Assembly (NCBI GenBank): GCA_019448215.1
Contig: CP080408.1
Coordinates: 868,001 to 932,000 of the forward strand
DNA from: Thalassovita mediterranea
Lineage (GTDB): Bacteria; Pseudomonadota; Alphaproteobacteria; Caulobacterales; Hyphomonadaceae
Length of the DNA stretch: 64,000 nucleotides
Reading direction: 5' to 3'
Shown here in pieces: positions 40,336 through 55,188 of the stretch. How positions within the stretch are numbered: the stretch's first letter is position 1; the number at the start of each line of letters is the position of its first letter. The notes below the pieces were generated by a model. That model did not search any database, was not told the origin of the DNA, and saw only the letters and a program-made list of their open reading frames with translations. Both the position numbers and the translations under genes were made by a program.

Positions 40336-40959
40336 ATGATCATGCGCCACGGCGACGTCTGGAAGGGCATAGATCTTCTGGCAGAGAAGAACGGCCTCAG
40401 CGCCTCTGGCCTTGCCCGTCAGGCGGGTCTCGACCCGACAAGCTTCAACCCCTCCAAACGCCAGGCCAAGGATGGACGCCTGCGCTGGCCATCGACCGAA
40501 AGCATTGCCCGGGCTCTGGAAGCAGTGGGCGCGGGCATGGATGATTTTGCAGCCCTTATCGAAGGCCATCGCGGCGCGACGGCCCCGCTCATTGGCCTTG
40601 CGCAGGCTGGTGCCGATGGCTTCTTCGATGATAGCGGCTTTCCAACCGGCGGCGGCTGGGACGAGGTCCGGTTTCCCGGCCTTGGCGGCGATCCTGTCTA
40701 TGCGCTGGAGATCACCGGCGACAGTATGGAGCCTGCCTATCGCGAAGGCGACCGCATCATCGTCGCCCCCGGCGCACAGGTGCGCAAGGGCGACCGTGTT
40801 GTGGTCAAGACCGAGGACGGCGAGGTCATGGCGAAGGTGCTCGGTCGGCAGACCGAAACGCAGGTCGAGCTTGTCTCACTCAATCCCGACCATCCTGTCC
40901 GCACTTTTAAACCGTCGCAAATCAACTGGATTGCGCGCATCCTCTGGGTGAGCCAGTAA
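40336..40959 (+). CDS. S24 (LexA-like) peptidase with N-terminal HTH
   Basis: 207 residues. An N-terminal helix-turn-helix region (about 10-75) is followed by an S24 self-cleaving domain. Catalytic Ser130 is in GDSMEP and Lys158 in VVVKTEDG; Ala91-Gly92 (LAQAGADG) is a LexA-type cleavage pair. No other phage genes are near, so it is a chromosomal regulator and not part of a visible prophage. GCGGAGATCA precedes ATG40336. Target genes are unknown. Confidence 0.88.
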   Translation: MIMRHGDVWKGIDLLAEKNGLSASGLARQAGLDPTSFNPSKRQAKDGRLRWPSTESIARALEAVGAGMDDFAALIEGHRGATAPLIGLAQAGADGFFDDSGFPTGGGWDEVRFPGLGGDPVYALEITGDSMEPAYREGDRIIVAPGAQVRKGDRVVVKTEDGEVMAKVLGRQTETQVELVSLNPDHPVRTFKPSQINWIARILWVSQ

Positions 40960-40971
40960 GCACCTGCAGCG

Positions 40972-40986
40972 TTCGCATACGCAGCA
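40972..40986 (+). promoter_or_regulatory. 15-bp box upstream of lysR (VtlR-type autoregulatory site)
   Basis: TTCGCATACGCAGCA, identical to 42004-42018. CATAAT directly follows (40987-40992), in the same register as TTTAGC follows the second copy. The start codon of lysR is 50 bases downstream. Confidence 0.65.
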
Positions 40987-41035
40987 CATAATCCGCTTGC
41001 CCTGACGTCCGTGAGCGTGTCATCCAAAAGACGTT

Positions 41036-41950
41036 ATGGACTGGGACAAGCTCAAATCCTTCCACGCTGCGGCAGAAGCTGGCAGCCTGACGGCCGCGGG
41101 TGAACGCCTCGGCATTTCGCAGTCGGCTGTCTCGCGGCAAATTTCCGCCCTTGAAGAACAGCTTGGCGTCTCGCTATTCCAGCGCCATGCGCGCGGTCTT
41201 GTCCTCACGGATGCTGGCCATACGCTTCACCGCTCGACCATGGACATGGCCTCTGCGGCGCAGTCGGCCAATGCAGCCCTTCGCGACCAGCAGGATGTGG
41301 CCCAGGGCGACCTCGTGGTTACAGCCCCTGTAGCTTTCGGCTCGACCTGGCTGGTGCCGCGACTGGGCAACTTTCTCAGCGCCAATTCCGGGATGCGGAT
41401 CGATCTGCGCCTCGACGATGGCGAGACCTATGACCTTCTGAAGCTGGAAGCGGAATGCGCCATCCGCCTCTGGGCGGCTGACAAGTCCGACCTGATCCAG
41501 CGCAAGCTCGGCACGGTCGCGACGAACCTCTATGCGTCACCGGAATACCTGAAGGCGCATGGCACGCCGCGCACGCCGCAGGATCTCGATAATCACCGGA
41601 TCATTGGCTACGGCACGGAAAATACGCCGCTGGACGCGATGAGCTGGGCCCAGCGGGTTGGCCGCGATGATACGCTCCCGCGCAAGGCAACGCTGCAGGT
41701 GCGAAACGTGCCAGCCATGCTGCGCGCCGTCGAAGCCGGCATCGGGATCGCGGACCTTCCAGACTATATGGTGAGCGCGGTGCCGAAGCTGGTGCGCGTC
41801 CTGCCGGACCATACCGGGCCGACCTTCGACCTCTTCTTCATCTATCCAAGCGACCTCAAGCGATCCAAGCGAATCGCGGTGTTCCGGGACTTCCTCACGG
41901 CCGAAGTGGACGCGATCAAACGCGAAAACCTGCAACTTCGTGCAAGCTGA
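41036..41950 (+). CDS. LysR-family regulator, VtlR/LsrB type
   Basis: 304 residues. The N-terminus MDWDKLKSFHAAAEAGSLTA followed by SQSAVSRQISALEEQLGVSL and FQRHARGLVLTDAG is the hallmark of VtlR (Brucella) and LsrB (Sinorhizobium), known activators of AbcR-type small RNAs. The effector domain occupies about 90-300. An identical 15-bp box lies upstream of this gene and 54 bases after its stop, in front of a small-RNA candidate. The gene has no obvious ribosome site (CAAAAGACGTT precedes the ATG). Confidence 0.9.
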   Translation: MDWDKLKSFHAAAEAGSLTAAGERLGISQSAVSRQISALEEQLGVSLFQRHARGLVLTDAGHTLHRSTMDMASAAQSANAALRDQQDVAQGDLVVTAPVAFGSTWLVPRLGNFLSANSGMRIDLRLDDGETYDLLKLEAECAIRLWAADKSDLIQRKLGTVATNLYASPEYLKAHGTPRTPQDLDNHRIIGYGTENTPLDAMSWAQRVGRDDTLPRKATLQVRNVPAMLRAVEAGIGIADLPDYMVSAVPKLVRVLPDHTGPTFDLFFIYPSDLKRSKRIAVFRDFLTAEVDAIKRENLQLRAS

Positions 41951-42003
41951 CCCTAGGTAACATGCAGAAATGCATGGCTTCAATACTGAAACGGGTGTTT
42001 TCT

Positions 42004-42018
42004 TTCGCATACGCAGCA
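42004..42018 (+). promoter_or_regulatory. 15-bp box upstream of the small-RNA candidate
   Basis: TTCGCATACGCAGCA, an exact copy of the box at 40972. TTTAGC follows at 42019-42024 as a possible -10, placing transcription start near 42031. Confidence 0.65.
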
Positions 42019-42030
42019 TTTAGCTGACGC

Positions 42031-42141
42031 GCATGCCTTGGTTCCGGCTTCAGCCAATCTCCTCCGATTGTGCGTTTCCTCCCTCCAAGTAGGAACCGAT
42101 ACTTAGAGCCCGGCGCGATCACTCGCAGCCGGGCTTTTTTT
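42031..42141 (+). ncRNA. Candidate small RNA with anti-Shine-Dalgarno loops (AbcR/alpha-r15-like)
   Basis: About 111 bases between lysR and dps. Hairpin 1: CAATC (42055-42059) and GATTG (42066-42070) enclose the loop TCCTCC. Hairpin 2: TTCCT (42076-42080) and AGGAA (42091-42095) enclose a 10-base loop starting CCCTCC. An outer pairing of GGTTCC (42040) with GGAACC (42092) is an alternative fold. The terminator is AGCCCGGC/GCCGGGCT (42107-42135) followed by seven T. The pyrimidine-rich loops and the position after a VtlR-like gene match AbcR small RNAs, which repress transporter mRNAs with Hfq in Rhizobiales. Its 5' end is inferred; no coding frame is present. Confidence 0.7.
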
Positions 42142-42168
42142 CTGCCTTTTTGACTGACGGGCCACCAG

Positions 42169-42615
42169 CTAGATGCTGGCGCGCAGCATCCATGCCGCCT
42201 TCTCGGATATCGCCGCGCGCTGTGTGAGCAAGTCGGCCGTCACGACGTCGCCATCGCTTTCGGCAGCCTCGACGCCCTTGCGCGCAACTTCCGCCAGCAT
42301 CTCATGACCGCGCACGAGATTGTTGATCATGTCTTCAGCGTCCGGCACGCCATTGTCCGGCTTGATCGTCGCGCTGGACAGGATTTCTTCGGTTGAGCCG
42401 GGTGCGAACTTCCCAAGCGCCCGCAGGCGCTCGGCAAGCTCATCCAGCGCCGTCCAGAGCTCCGTGTATTGCTGCATGAACAGCTCGTGTAGCGACTTGA
42501 AGCGCGGCCCGGTGACGTTCCAGTGATAGCCGTGCGTCTTCACATAAAGCGCATAGGTGTCGCCCAGCACATTACGCAGGGCCTCAATCGATGCATTTCG
42601 ATCTGTATTACTCAT
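42169..42615 (-). CDS. dps: Dps-family ferritin-like DNA-protection protein
   Basis: 148 residues. Iron-oxidising dodecamer that protects DNA in starvation and oxidative stress. Ferroxidase residues are in KTHGYHWNVTGPRFKSLHE and QQYTELWTALDELAERLR. A strong GGAGG precedes ATG42615. It is convergent with the small-RNA candidate. Confidence 0.93.
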   Translation of the reverse strand: MSNTDRNASIEALRNVLGDTYALYVKTHGYHWNVTGPRFKSLHELFMQQYTELWTALDELAERLRALGKFAPGSTEEILSSATIKPDNGVPDAEDMINNLVRGHEMLAEVARKGVEAAESDGDVVTADLLTQRAAISEKAAWMLRASI

Positions 42616-54048: not shown

Positions 54049-54939
54049 ATGACGATTGAGGCGACAGAAGAGCAGAGCCCGATGCCGGGCAATGGGCTGA
54101 GCTTGCCGGCCTTCTCTCTCGTCATGCCTGAAACAGATGAACGCCCGCTGATATTTGCGTCCCCCCACAGCGGGCGGGAATATCCCGACCACTTCCGCAA
54201 CAGTTTGCGTGTGCCACTTCTGGATCTAAAACAGACAGAAGACGCCTATGTCGATGAGCTGTTCGCGAACGCGCCTCTTTATGGTGCGCGGCTGCTGAAA
54301 GCGACCTATGCGCGCTCCTTTGTCGATCTCAACCGCGATCCGCGCGAGATTGACGCCTCCATGTTTCATGGTGACCCGCCAGGGCCTGTCGCTGCACCCA
54401 CAGTCCGGGTCGAAGCGGGACTGGGCTGCTTCCCGCGTATCGGTGCGCGCGGTGAGTTCATTTATGCAAAAAAGCTGGACCCAGCTGACGGGCGCGCCCG
54501 TCTGGACTTTGTTCACACGCCGTATCACGCCGCATTATCGGGCGAGATTGCTGCACTGCGTCAGAAGCATGGCTGCGCCATTCTGATCGATTGCCACTCC
54601 ATGCCGTCGACCCAGCCGGGCCGCCCTGACTTGCCCGATTTCGTGCTTGGCGACCGCTTTGGGTCGAGCTGCACAGGCCAGCTGACCGGCCTTGTGGAGC
54701 GAACATTACGCAAGGCAGGATACAGCGTTGTGAGGAATGCGCCTTATGCTGGCGGCTTTACCACACGGAAGTATGGCCGGCCGAAACAGCACGTCCACGC
54801 CTTGCAAATAGAGATAAACCGGCGACTTTACCTTGATGAAGCTCAAGTCACAGCGATTGACGCGATGGCCGCGCTGTCGCATCAGCTAGATGGGCTGATG
54901 GAAAATATCTCTGAATTGAGCGACCGCTTGCGCCCATAA
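54049..54939 (+). CDS. N-formylglutamate amidohydrolase
   Basis: 296 residues from ATG54049. IFASPHSGREYPDHF, RSFVDLNRDPREID and ILIDCHSMPS match the HutG/N-formylglutamate amidohydrolase family, which hydrolyses N-formylglutamate in histidine breakdown or a related zinc-dependent role. ATG54082 is an alternative start. Divergent from cpdR, 120 bases apart. Confidence 0.9.
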   Translation: MTIEATEEQSPMPGNGLSLPAFSLVMPETDERPLIFASPHSGREYPDHFRNSLRVPLLDLKQTEDAYVDELFANAPLYGARLLKATYARSFVDLNRDPREIDASMFHGDPPGPVAAPTVRVEAGLGCFPRIGARGEFIYAKKLDPADGRARLDFVHTPYHAALSGEIAALRQKHGCAILIDCHSMPSTQPGRPDLPDFVLGDRFGSSCTGQLTGLVERTLRKAGYSVVRNAPYAGGFTTRKYGRPKQHVHALQIEINRRLYLDEAQVTAIDAMAALSHQLDGLMENISELSDRLRP

Positions 54940-55025
54940 AAAAAGGGCCGCGCCAAGGCTGGCGCGGCCGAATAAGGTAAAGGGAGGAAACGCCAGAAGG
55001 CGTTAGCACCGCAGTGCTGAGACCA
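54938..55025 (-). ncRNA. Candidate minus-strand small RNA with free UCCUCCC
   Basis: Read on the minus strand: hairpin AGCAC-TGCG-GTGCT (55018-55005), directly followed by hairpin AACGCC-TTCT-GGCGTT (55004-54989), then an unpaired segment TCCTCCCTTTACC, then a terminator of 10 perfect pairs (GGCCGCGCCA/TGGCGCGGCC, 54969-54946) and seven T (54944-54938). The unpaired part shares GTTTCCTCCCT with the candidate at 42031. The terminator points away from any minus-strand gene, so it must end its own transcript. The 5' end near 55025 is a guess; AATAAG-like sequence lies just upstream. Confidence 0.65.
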
Positions 55026-55188
55026 ACTTATTGTGCGGCGCACAAAATGCAAGACCCAAAATCTGCATCGATGCGTTTTTGCATGAAATCAGACTGAGAC
55101 AACCGGACGGCATGAAGTTTGCTCTCCATCTCTGCGACGCTCAAACCGGGACGATCCCGGGCTTAAGGATGATCAAGGGGAGCCGGGC

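What the first reader, a model, noticed from the sequence alone, without database searches (positions are those of the whole stretch)
40972..42141. VtlR-like LysR gene followed by an AbcR-like small RNA, both behind an identical 15-bp box
Seen: TTCGCATACGCAGCA occurs exactly twice, at 40972-40986 (50 bases before lysR) and 42004-42018 (before a non-coding stretch), each followed in the same register by a -10-like hexamer. The non-coding stretch folds into CAATC-[TCCTCC]-GATTG, TTCCT-[CCCTCC...]-AGGAA and a strong terminator with seven T. Known: VtlR/LsrB LysR proteins with this N-terminus activate AbcR (alpha-r15) small RNAs in Rhizobiales, which pair with Shine-Dalgarno regions of transporter mRNAs. 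Inference: the same circuit exists in this Caulobacterales-like genome, with autoregulation.
Basis: partly seen in the sequence, partly recalled or inferred. Interest (0 to 1): 0.87.

Follow-up and report, generated by a model that had tools for sequence, protein, structure and literature searches.

The report
LysR regulator with its own small RNA
A marine bacterium carries, right behind a LysR-type regulator gene of the VtlR/LsrB kind, an uncatalogued small RNA that looks built to block ribosome-binding sites, and the same order of regulator, DNA site and small RNA recurs in many Alphaproteobacteria, which suggests that a circuit so far studied in rhizobia and their kin is older and wider.

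Summary
The 15-bp box, first hairpin and terminator are real; the second hairpin is not, and only the lysR-side hexamer (CATAAT) looks like a -10. The genome is Henriciella-like (Hyphomonadaceae). The LysR is the best match of S. meliloti LsrB (VtlR) in its genome. Behind it lies a covariation-supported sRNA of about 112 nt: an outer stem enclosing a hairpin with a UCCUCC loop and the invariant GUUUCCUCCC, then a terminator. It follows lysR in 23 of 25 genomes of the genus and reaches no Rfam cut-off, neither AbcR (ar15) nor alphaR8. The likely LysR site is not the 15-mer but ATGC-N6-GCAT at 41962-41975, whose right half matches the published VtlR box GCAT-N3-TG-N3-T in 6 of 7 letters. That palindrome (N6 or N7) followed by an anti-Shine-Dalgarno motif occurs behind lysR in 41 of 48 Hyphomonadaceae loci and 42 of 101 other loci of the class, 0 in controls; AbcR (S. 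meliloti, R. leguminosarum) and SorX/SorY-like RNAs (Paracoccus) hold the same slot. The site also precedes the genome's alphaR8 sRNA, in the same window. Autoregulation through the 15-mer is unsupported. Expression and binding are untested. New variant of a known kind.

The parts
41036..41950 (+). lysR gene, 304 aa, VtlR/LsrB ortholog
   Evidence: Pfam HTH_1 + LysR_substrate; best match of S. meliloti LsrB in the genome, 44% identity; tree
41962..41975 (+). proposed LysR recognition site, palindrome ATGC-N6-GCAT
   Evidence: exact ATGC-N6-GCAT within 250 nt after lysR in 43 of 50 Hyphomonadaceae loci, 0.2 expected from shuffles
41972..41984 (+). counterpart of the published VtlR/LsrB box GCAT-N3-TG-N3-T (here GCATGGCTTCAAT, 6 of 7 fixed letters)
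   Evidence: published box in PMC7486931 and PMC8844928 passages; same register in the class consensus and in Rhizobiaceae
40972..40986 (+). 15-bp box, copy 1, before lysR; its protein unknown; followed by CATAAT
42004..42018 (+). 15-bp box, copy 2, before the sRNA; its protein unknown
42018..42026 (+). probable -10 region of the sRNA, weak match to consensus
   Evidence: placed only by alignment with TATCTA/CATATA-like stretches of relatives; not found by the consensus scan
42030..42141 (+). sRNA gene, about 112 nt; 5' end inferred
   Evidence: model R1 92.3 bits at 42035-42139, the one match in the genome at E<=0.01
42040..42045 (+). outer stem, 5' arm (pairs with 42092-42097)
   Evidence: covariation; minimum-energy fold
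42055..42070 (+). inner hairpin CAAUC-UCCUCC-GAUUG, aSD1 in its loop (42060-42065)
42074..42084 (+). aSD2 GUUUCCUCCCU, holding the alphaR8 10-mer UUUCCUCCCU (42075-42084); unpaired in the fold
   Evidence: GTTTCCTCCC invariant in all 40 aligned rows; fold
42092..42097 (+). outer stem, 3' arm
42107..42141 (+). intrinsic terminator with seven T
   Evidence: 98.4% of cells paired in 40 relatives; sequence
54931..55008 (-). second aSD sRNA of the genome: alphaR8/MmgR/SisA ortholog
   Evidence: RF00519 47.4 bits, cut-off 41; beside the FGase gene 54049-54939 (Pfam FGase 245 bits)
55071..55084 (-). palindrome of the same type (ATGCAAAAACGCAT) before the alphaR8 sRNA

Best explanation
The VtlR/LsrB-type LysR (41036-41950) binds the palindrome at 41962-41975 and its 3' extension, about 60 bases before the inferred start of a stand-alone sRNA gene, and activates it. 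The sRNA ends at its own terminator and exposes two C/U-rich stretches, UCCUCC in a hairpin loop and UUUCCUCCCU in the open region within an outer stem. It base-pairs with Shine-Dalgarno sequences of transport and metabolism mRNAs, probably with Hfq, and lowers their translation. The same LysR probably also drives the alphaR8 sRNA at 54931-55008, which carries the same type of site, so that one regulator would command two aSD sRNAs. Shown by sequence comparison: LysR orthology, structure and conservation of the sRNA, the conserved site and its place before the sRNA. Inferred: transcription, LysR binding, direction of control, Hfq, targets. The 15-bp box is a further element shared by the lysR and sRNA promoters in a Henriciella subgroup; its protein is unknown.
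For: Orthology: S. meliloti LsrB hits the window gene at E 1.4e-75, the next own gene at 7e-33; 44% identity to LsrB and to PDB 9HH1, which PMC11975290 deposited as A. tumefaciens LsrB; 25 orthologs group apart from six own paralogs (89/93). sRNA: 9 pairs and 52 cells with changes on both sides, 0 of 500 shuffles as high; model hits above 60 bits in 34 of 81 genomes, all of family f1. Site: exact ATGC-N6-GCAT in 43 of 50 Hyphomonadaceae loci (0.2 expected), ATGC-N7-GCAT in 43 of 101 other loci (0.6 expected). Site then aSD motif, exact: 41 of 48 and 42 of 101, against 0 on the opposite strand and 0 upstream. The class consensus AGCCATGC-N7-GCATGGCTG-N3-T holds the published box in register; in S. 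meliloti and R. leguminosarum the palindrome overlaps that box before the first AbcR gene. Published: removing the LsrB motif lowers PabcR1 more than 22-fold, and two aSD motifs act by base-pairing (PMC8844928 passages). A palindrome ATGC-N6-GC(A/G) lies before alphaR8 in 11 of 12 genus relatives, in one more (L257) and in the window.
Against: No expression or binding data. No good -10 or -35 before the sRNA. The window box differs from the published one by one letter (TT for TG). Spacing is N6 in Hyphomonadaceae, N7 elsewhere. The palindrome was first seen by eye in the loci then counted. Of 101 other loci 59 lack the exact site-plus-aSD pair (35 with one mismatch allowed); 21 of 21 Pelagibacter-type orthologs lack the site. 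Of three Rhizobiaceae loci Shinella (L289) has the published box but no exact palindrome; Azospirillum (L290), Paracoccus (L291) and Methylobacterium (L292) have neither. Hyphomonas TMED17 (L042) has lysR but no sRNA core. LsrB's redox cysteine C273 is missing and trxB is not the neighbour, so the signal must differ. One study found LsrB not involved in AbcR expression in S. meliloti (PMC7486931), another that it drives AbcR1 (PMC8844928).
Confidence: 0.72

Rival explanations
1. The sRNA is a divergent alphaR8 (MmgR/SisA) paralog whose place behind lysR is accidental and whose control is independent of the LysR, as each Caulobacter SisA-D sRNA has its own promoter control.
For: It holds the alphaR8 10-mer UUUCCUCCCU downstream of a hairpin and before a terminator (family traits and SisA-D promoters from PMC12559287 passages); ar15 and suhB share Rfam clan CL00108.
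Against: 18.8 bits against a cut-off of 41; the outer stem is not among the traits named for alphaR8; a true alphaR8 with its FGase neighbour exists 13 kb away; a conserved LysR-type site precedes the sRNA.
Confidence: 0.15
2. One reading: the 15-bp box is the LysR operator at both promoters and gives autoregulation.
For: Identical box in both promoters; both copies kept in 6 loci, with differing middle letters in 5; the A. tumefaciens trxB-lsrB operon is reported to autoregulate.
Against: Absent before the sRNA in 45 of 51 Hyphomonadaceae loci, 43 of which have the sRNA core; does not fit GCAT-N3-TG-N3-T; by alignment it fills the stretch just before the -10 region, an unusual place for a LysR activator site.
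Confidence: 0.12
3. The stretch is only the 3' UTR and terminator of lysR, or an sRNA processed from it, without its own promoter.
For: It starts about 80 nt after the lysR stop on the same strand; no consensus promoter was found; 3' UTR-derived aSD RNAs exist (SorX, PMC6238624 passages).
Against: A conserved palindrome lies between lysR and the RNA; S. meliloti abcR1 at the same place has its own sigma70 promoter (PMC8844928 passage).
Confidence: 0.12

Closest known systems
VtlR/LsrB-AbcR1/AbcR2 circuit (Rhizobiales; ar15, RF02345)
   Same: Orthologous LysR; sRNA directly downstream on the same strand; LysR box about 60 bases before the sRNA start; two aSD stretches, one in a 5' hairpin loop, one unpaired; terminator
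   Different: sRNA not recognised by the ar15 model; aSD2 lies inside an outer stem instead of between stem-loops; one sRNA instead of two in tandem; no trxB neighbour; no C273
alphaR8 sRNAs (MmgR, SisA-D; RF00519)
   Same: 10-mer UUUCCUCCCU after a hairpin, terminator; same Rfam clan as ar15
   Different: Scores below cut-off; outer stem and a second aSD loop; linked to lysR, not to FGase; the genome's real alphaR8 is at 54931-55008
SorX/SorY (Rhodobacterales; RF02784, RF02651)
   Different: Other stems; neither model matches the window at E<=5
alphar14/NfeR1, 'cuckoo' RNAs (RF02344)
   Same: aSD loops that repress transporter mRNAs (PMC7143759 passages)
   Different: 20.0 bits against 58.8; three hairpins each with the loop motif
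OxyR-OxyS
   Same: LysR-type regulator gene beside an sRNA gene (stated in PMC11975290 section 31)
   Different: Other sRNA and other LysR family (recalled)

Membership tests
VtlR/LsrB LysR | Full-length orthology to LsrB/VtlR | tested here: met
   LsrB finds the window gene first in its genome; the window gene finds one place in the S. meliloti record CP090106 at E<=1e-50, lsrB (not the whole S. meliloti genome); tree (long paralog branches)
VtlR/LsrB LysR | Binding element GCAT-N3-TG-N3-T before the linked sRNA | tested here: inconclusive
   6 of 7 letters at 41972-41984; binding not testable
VtlR/LsrB LysR | trxB upstream (typical context, not defining) | tested here: not met
   S24-peptidase gene upstream; trxB in 1 of 51 Hyphomonadaceae, 77 of 102 other loci
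VtlR/LsrB LysR | Redox cysteines C144 and C273 (reported for Rhizobiales; not defining) | tested here: not met
   C144 kept in 50 of 50 Hyphomonadaceae rows and 16 of 102 others; C273 in 0 of 50 and 1 of 102
AbcR / ar15 (RF02345) | Covariance model above 40 bits | tested here: not met
   Not listed at E<=5 nor in 10 relatives at E<=3; positive controls S. meliloti 110.2 and 106.5, R. leguminosarum 127 and 116.3, Shinella 103 and 97.1
AbcR / ar15 (RF02345) | Gene next to vtlR/lsrB | tested here: met
   R1 hit 87-114 nt after the LysR match, same strand, in 23 of 25 genomes of the genus, own included
AbcR / ar15 (RF02345) | Hfq binding and transporter mRNA repression | not testable with these tools
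   -
alphaR8 / MmgR (RF00519) | Covariance model above 41 bits | tested here: not met
   18.8 bits; in 10 relatives at most 31.7, a Hirschia copy
alphaR8 / MmgR (RF00519) | Unpaired 10-mer UUUCCUCCCU and terminator | tested here: met
   42075-42084; many relatives read UUUCCUCCCC instead
alphaR8 / MmgR (RF00519) | Beside an FGase gene (most species) | tested here: not met
   The FGase-linked copy is at 54931-55008
alphar14 (RF02344) | Covariance model above 58.8 bits | tested here: not met
   20.0 bits

The most novel reading that the evidence does not exclude
VtlR/LsrB and an aSD sRNA right behind it form one ancestral alphaproteobacterial module: the same LysR, the same operator ATGC-N6/7-GCAT-N3-TG-N3-T and an sRNA in the same slot, known in Rhizobiaceae as AbcR1/2, seen in Rhodobacterales as a SorX/SorY-like RNA, in Hyphomonadaceae as the RNA described here. 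The sRNA bodies have diverged beyond recognition while regulator, site and aSD core stayed; in Henriciella the LysR has in addition taken over the alphaR8 sRNA. Redox sensing through C144-C273 would be a late addition in Rhizobiales.
Probability: 0.6. Interest if true: 0.8.

Novelty: new variant of a known kind. Interest (0 to 1): 0.7.

Why it matters
VtlR/LsrB matters for symbiosis and virulence, yet a 2025 paper calls LsrB unique to Rhizobiales on the basis of a few reference species (PMC11975290 section 31). Here orthologs, the same operator and an aSD sRNA in the same slot appear across the class, also in marine Hyphomonadaceae that lack the redox cysteine C273. That separates a conserved output (one LysR, one or two SD-blocking sRNAs) from a lineage-specific input, gives a defined operator to search for, adds an uncatalogued sRNA family, and makes testable whether AbcR, SorX/SorY-like and Hyphomonadaceae RNAs are the same gene.

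Tried and rejected
Rejected: (1) the second hairpin TTCCT..AGGAA. (2) ar14, alphaR8, Betaproteobacteria toxic sRNA, NsiR1 and anti-hemB as family of the window RNA: all below cut-off; ar15 not listed. (3) The 15-mer as VtlR box. (4) The 1-mismatch copy of the 15-mer at G000:C1:1527609, near a TonB-receptor gene: it lies inside the reading frame of the divergent neighbour; taken as chance.

Led nowhere: ar15 searches over 142, 61 and 385 genomes found nothing above cut-off (one search had 10 weak matches); controls rang in none or one, so these say nothing on absence; the AbcR controls came from the plasmid collection instead. The strict palindrome ATGCANNNNNGCATG gave 15 matches in the genome; their contexts were not classified. 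Perfect complements of GTTTCCTCCC: 10 places against 3 for the reversed pattern; three are the aSD RNAs themselves; L311 stands 5 nt before a receptor gene's ATG, L305 4 nt before the ATG of an unexamined 147-aa frame. A duplex energy had no control and is not used. Structure prediction was not run.

Rows dropped: one search counts 93 of 94 loci (L139 too short); the loci are mostly the best-scoring of 166 genomes with a match, not all, and one (L118) is itself Hyphomonadaceae by its family label. A1 holds 40 of the 49 loci with a core: left out were L010, L022, L036, L053, L054, L065 (same as or close to others), L026 and L040 (truncated), L051 (divergent); L031 (truncated) and L042 had no core. 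In one search the paralog rows reach up to the previous stop, so their N-termini are too long. Change after checking: the sRNA-side -10 is weaker than first written, so I lowered the main confidence from 0.75 to 0.72 and raised the 3' UTR rival from 0.08 to 0.12.

Full report
What is there. The window lies in a 3.22-Mb single-contig genome. The six best named lysR matches, 96-100% identical, are all Henriciella. Order: S24-peptidase gene, lysR (41036-41950, +), sRNA (about 42030-42141, +), Dps-like ferritin gene (-). The 15-bp box is exact before both and has no other exact copy in the genome.

The LysR. Pfam finds HTH_1 and LysR_substrate. S. meliloti LsrB as query finds the window gene first (E 1.4e-75; next own gene 7e-33). 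Identity is 44.2% to S. meliloti LsrB, 42.8% to an R. leguminosarum protein that its record names VtlR, 44.2% to 9HH1, deposited as A. tumefaciens LsrB (PMC11975290 passage). Across the class 166 of 289 genomes match at E <= 1e-50, 160 of them with one match and 6 with two to four. In a 31-row tree 25 orthologs stand apart from six own paralogs (89/93; the paralog branches are long). trxB is upstream in 77 of 102 other loci but in 1 of 51 Hyphomonadaceae; [quoted passage not shown] This speaks against LsrB being unique to Rhizobiales (PMC11975290 section 31). C144 is kept in 50 of 50 Hyphomonadaceae rows and 16 of 102 others; C273 in 0 of 50, 1 of 102, and 3 of 3 Rhizobiaceae rows. So the C144-C273 switch cannot form here.

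The sRNA. Of 51 Hyphomonadaceae loci 49 carry the core TTTCCTCC within 320 nt after lysR; L031 is truncated, L042 has none. An alignment of 40 supports an outer stem (columns 8-14/63-69), an inner hairpin (23-29/38-44) and a terminator: 95.9% of cells paired, 9 pairs and 52 cells changed on both sides, 0 of 500 shuffles as high; slid versions 23-53% paired. GTTTCCTCCC is invariant in all 40 rows. Model R1 gives one match in this genome (92.3 bits), hits above 60 bits in 34 of 81 genomes, all of family f1; 6 more f1 genomes at 34-48 bits, 9 f1 genomes none; 6 of 32 genomes of other families at up to 39 bits. In 23 of 25 genomes of the genus, own included, the hit follows the LysR match on the same strand by 87-114 nt; G007 has no hit, and in G023 lysR is at a contig end and the hit on another contig. 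Hirschia (L051) has two tandem copies, at 26.4 and 35.9 bits.

Known families. No Rfam family reaches its cut-off on the window RNA; ar15 is not listed at E <= 5, whereas six AbcR genes score 97-127 bits with the same tool. It holds the alphaR8 10-mer (traits from PMC12559287 passages), but the genome's real alphaR8 is a separate gene in this window, 54931-55008 (-), 47.4 bits, facing an FGase gene. ar15 and suhB share clan CL00108, so a remote common origin is possible.

The operator. Between lysR and sRNA, exact ATGC-N6-GCAT occurs in 43 of 50 Hyphomonadaceae loci (0.2 expected from shuffles), and ATGC-N7-GCAT, an instance of the LTTR motif T-N11-A, in 43 of 101 other loci (0.6 expected); before lysR in 0 of 51 and 3 of 102. 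Palindrome (N6 or N7) followed by an aSD motif: exact 41 of 48 and 42 of 101, with one mismatch 46 of 48 and 66 of 101; on the opposite strand 0, upstream 0 exact and at most 1 with a mismatch. The aSD motif alone within 400 nt: 70 of 93 loci, opposite strand 5, upstream 3 and 8, shuffles 19.3. The consensus of 45 class sites reads AGCC-ATGC-R-N5-Y-GCAT-GGCTG-N3-T; its right part is the published box GCAT-N3-TG-N3-T (PMC7486931, PMC8844928 passages). In S. meliloti and R. leguminosarum palindrome and box overlap before the first AbcR gene; Shinella has the box only; Azospirillum, Paracoccus and Methylobacterium have neither. All three further letters (T, G, T) fit in 13 of 44 class sites and 11 of 50 Hyphomonadaceae loci, at least two in 37 of 44 and 32 of 50. 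The window, ATGCAGAAATGCATGGCTTCAAT, has two of three. With a start near 42030 (inferred) the box spans about -58 to -46; S. meliloti -61 to -49 (PMC8844928). The palindrome was first seen by eye in these loci, so the counts describe it; the fit to the published box and the finding before alphaR8 came afterwards. No sigma-70 consensus promoter was found in 40900-42200.

Second sRNA. The alphaR8 gene carries ATGCAAAAACGCAT before its promoter. One search examined 25 relatives: of 12 of the same genus, 11 have ATGC-N6-GC(A/G) at -94/-95 of the core with varying centre (5 of them ATGC-N6-GCAT; L235 has none); of 13 from other families, 1 (L239) matches the relaxed pattern. One search adds L257 (exact) and, among 10 further genus genomes, 6 matches to a still looser pattern at -87/-88; the nine other aSD-like loci there have none. 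The link is thus lineage-specific.

Other lineages. Behind the LysR ortholog lie SorX/SorY-like RNAs in P. denitrificans (SorX 52.6 bits, cut-off 46.6; SorY 57.7, cut-off 111) and in L214 and L215 (SorX 41.5 and 52.3; SorY 62.1 and 52.8). CCTCCCTG(T/A) follows lysR within 420 nt in 54 of 94 loci. Whether SorY of R. sphaeroides itself is behind its LysR was not tested. Of 21 Pelagibacter-type orthologs none has the operator, one an aSD motif, and all 21 a 26-aa basic ORF at once downstream.

The 15-mer. TTCGCA-N3-GCAGCA is before lysR in 12 of 51 and before the sRNA in 6 of 51 loci. It is real and shared by both promoters of a subgroup, but it is not the class operator. Its protein is unknown.

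Literature. Seen as passages: PMC7486931, PMC8844928, PMC7143759, PMC3927594, PMC6238624; outline with abstract and passages: PMC12559287; passages and section 31: PMC11975290; all others as listings only. [quoted passage not shown] The listings of searches (one search showed 8 of 82 papers) show no paper titled on an sRNA behind lysR in Hyphomonadaceae or on LysR control of SorX/SorY; the library holds open-licence papers only, and most listed papers were not read.

Verdict. A VtlR/LsrB ortholog with a linked, uncatalogued aSD sRNA: it works like the LsrB-AbcR pair, but the RNA is not an ar15 member by model. Confidence 0.72 for the mechanism.

Noticed in passing
window 54931-55084 (-): alphaR8/SisA/MmgR ortholog facing an FGase gene, with a LysR-type palindrome before it.
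   Followed up: yes
L268 321-402 (G000:C1:1254800-1255500): A third aSD RNA (RF00519 37.1 bits, cut-off 41) right after the stop of a gene whose end looks like an ammonium transporter (recalled, not searched), with a GCGTTTCCTCCC core and terminator; the same in six relatives (L271-L276): perhaps a 3' UTR-derived sRNA.
   Followed up: partly
L312 about 1490-1557 (G000:C1:2302535): Intergenic hairpin GTTTC-TGGGAG-GAAAC plus terminator after hisG (Pfam HisG); perfect complement of the aSD core, a candidate sponge like Caulobacter CrfA. Conservation not tested.
   Followed up: partly
L311 1500-1516 (G000:C1:1527916): TonB-dependent receptor gene (Pfam Plug) whose SD GGGAGGAAAC, 5 nt before the ATG, is a perfect complement of GTTTCCTCCC; candidate target.
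   Followed up: partly
L066-L087 (without L068): Pelagibacter-type lysR orthologs are followed at once by a conserved 26-aa Arg/Lys-rich ORF (MGYPKKHRGRRKRGSKYRRNKRRQKKK and close variants), 21 of 21 loci, instead of an sRNA.
   Followed up: partly
window 40990-41035 and relatives: A CTTGC element about 40 bases before lysR is kept in many loci beyond Henriciella; many show no SD before ATG, so lysR may be leaderless there. Not counted.
   Followed up: no
window 55020-55060 (-): TTGTGCGCCGCACAA palindrome in the alphaR8 promoter, also in relatives: perhaps the site of another regulator.
   Followed up: no
L042: Hyphomonas TMED17 has lysR but no sRNA core within 320 nt, and its genome (G007 by coordinates) no R1 match.
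   Followed up: partly
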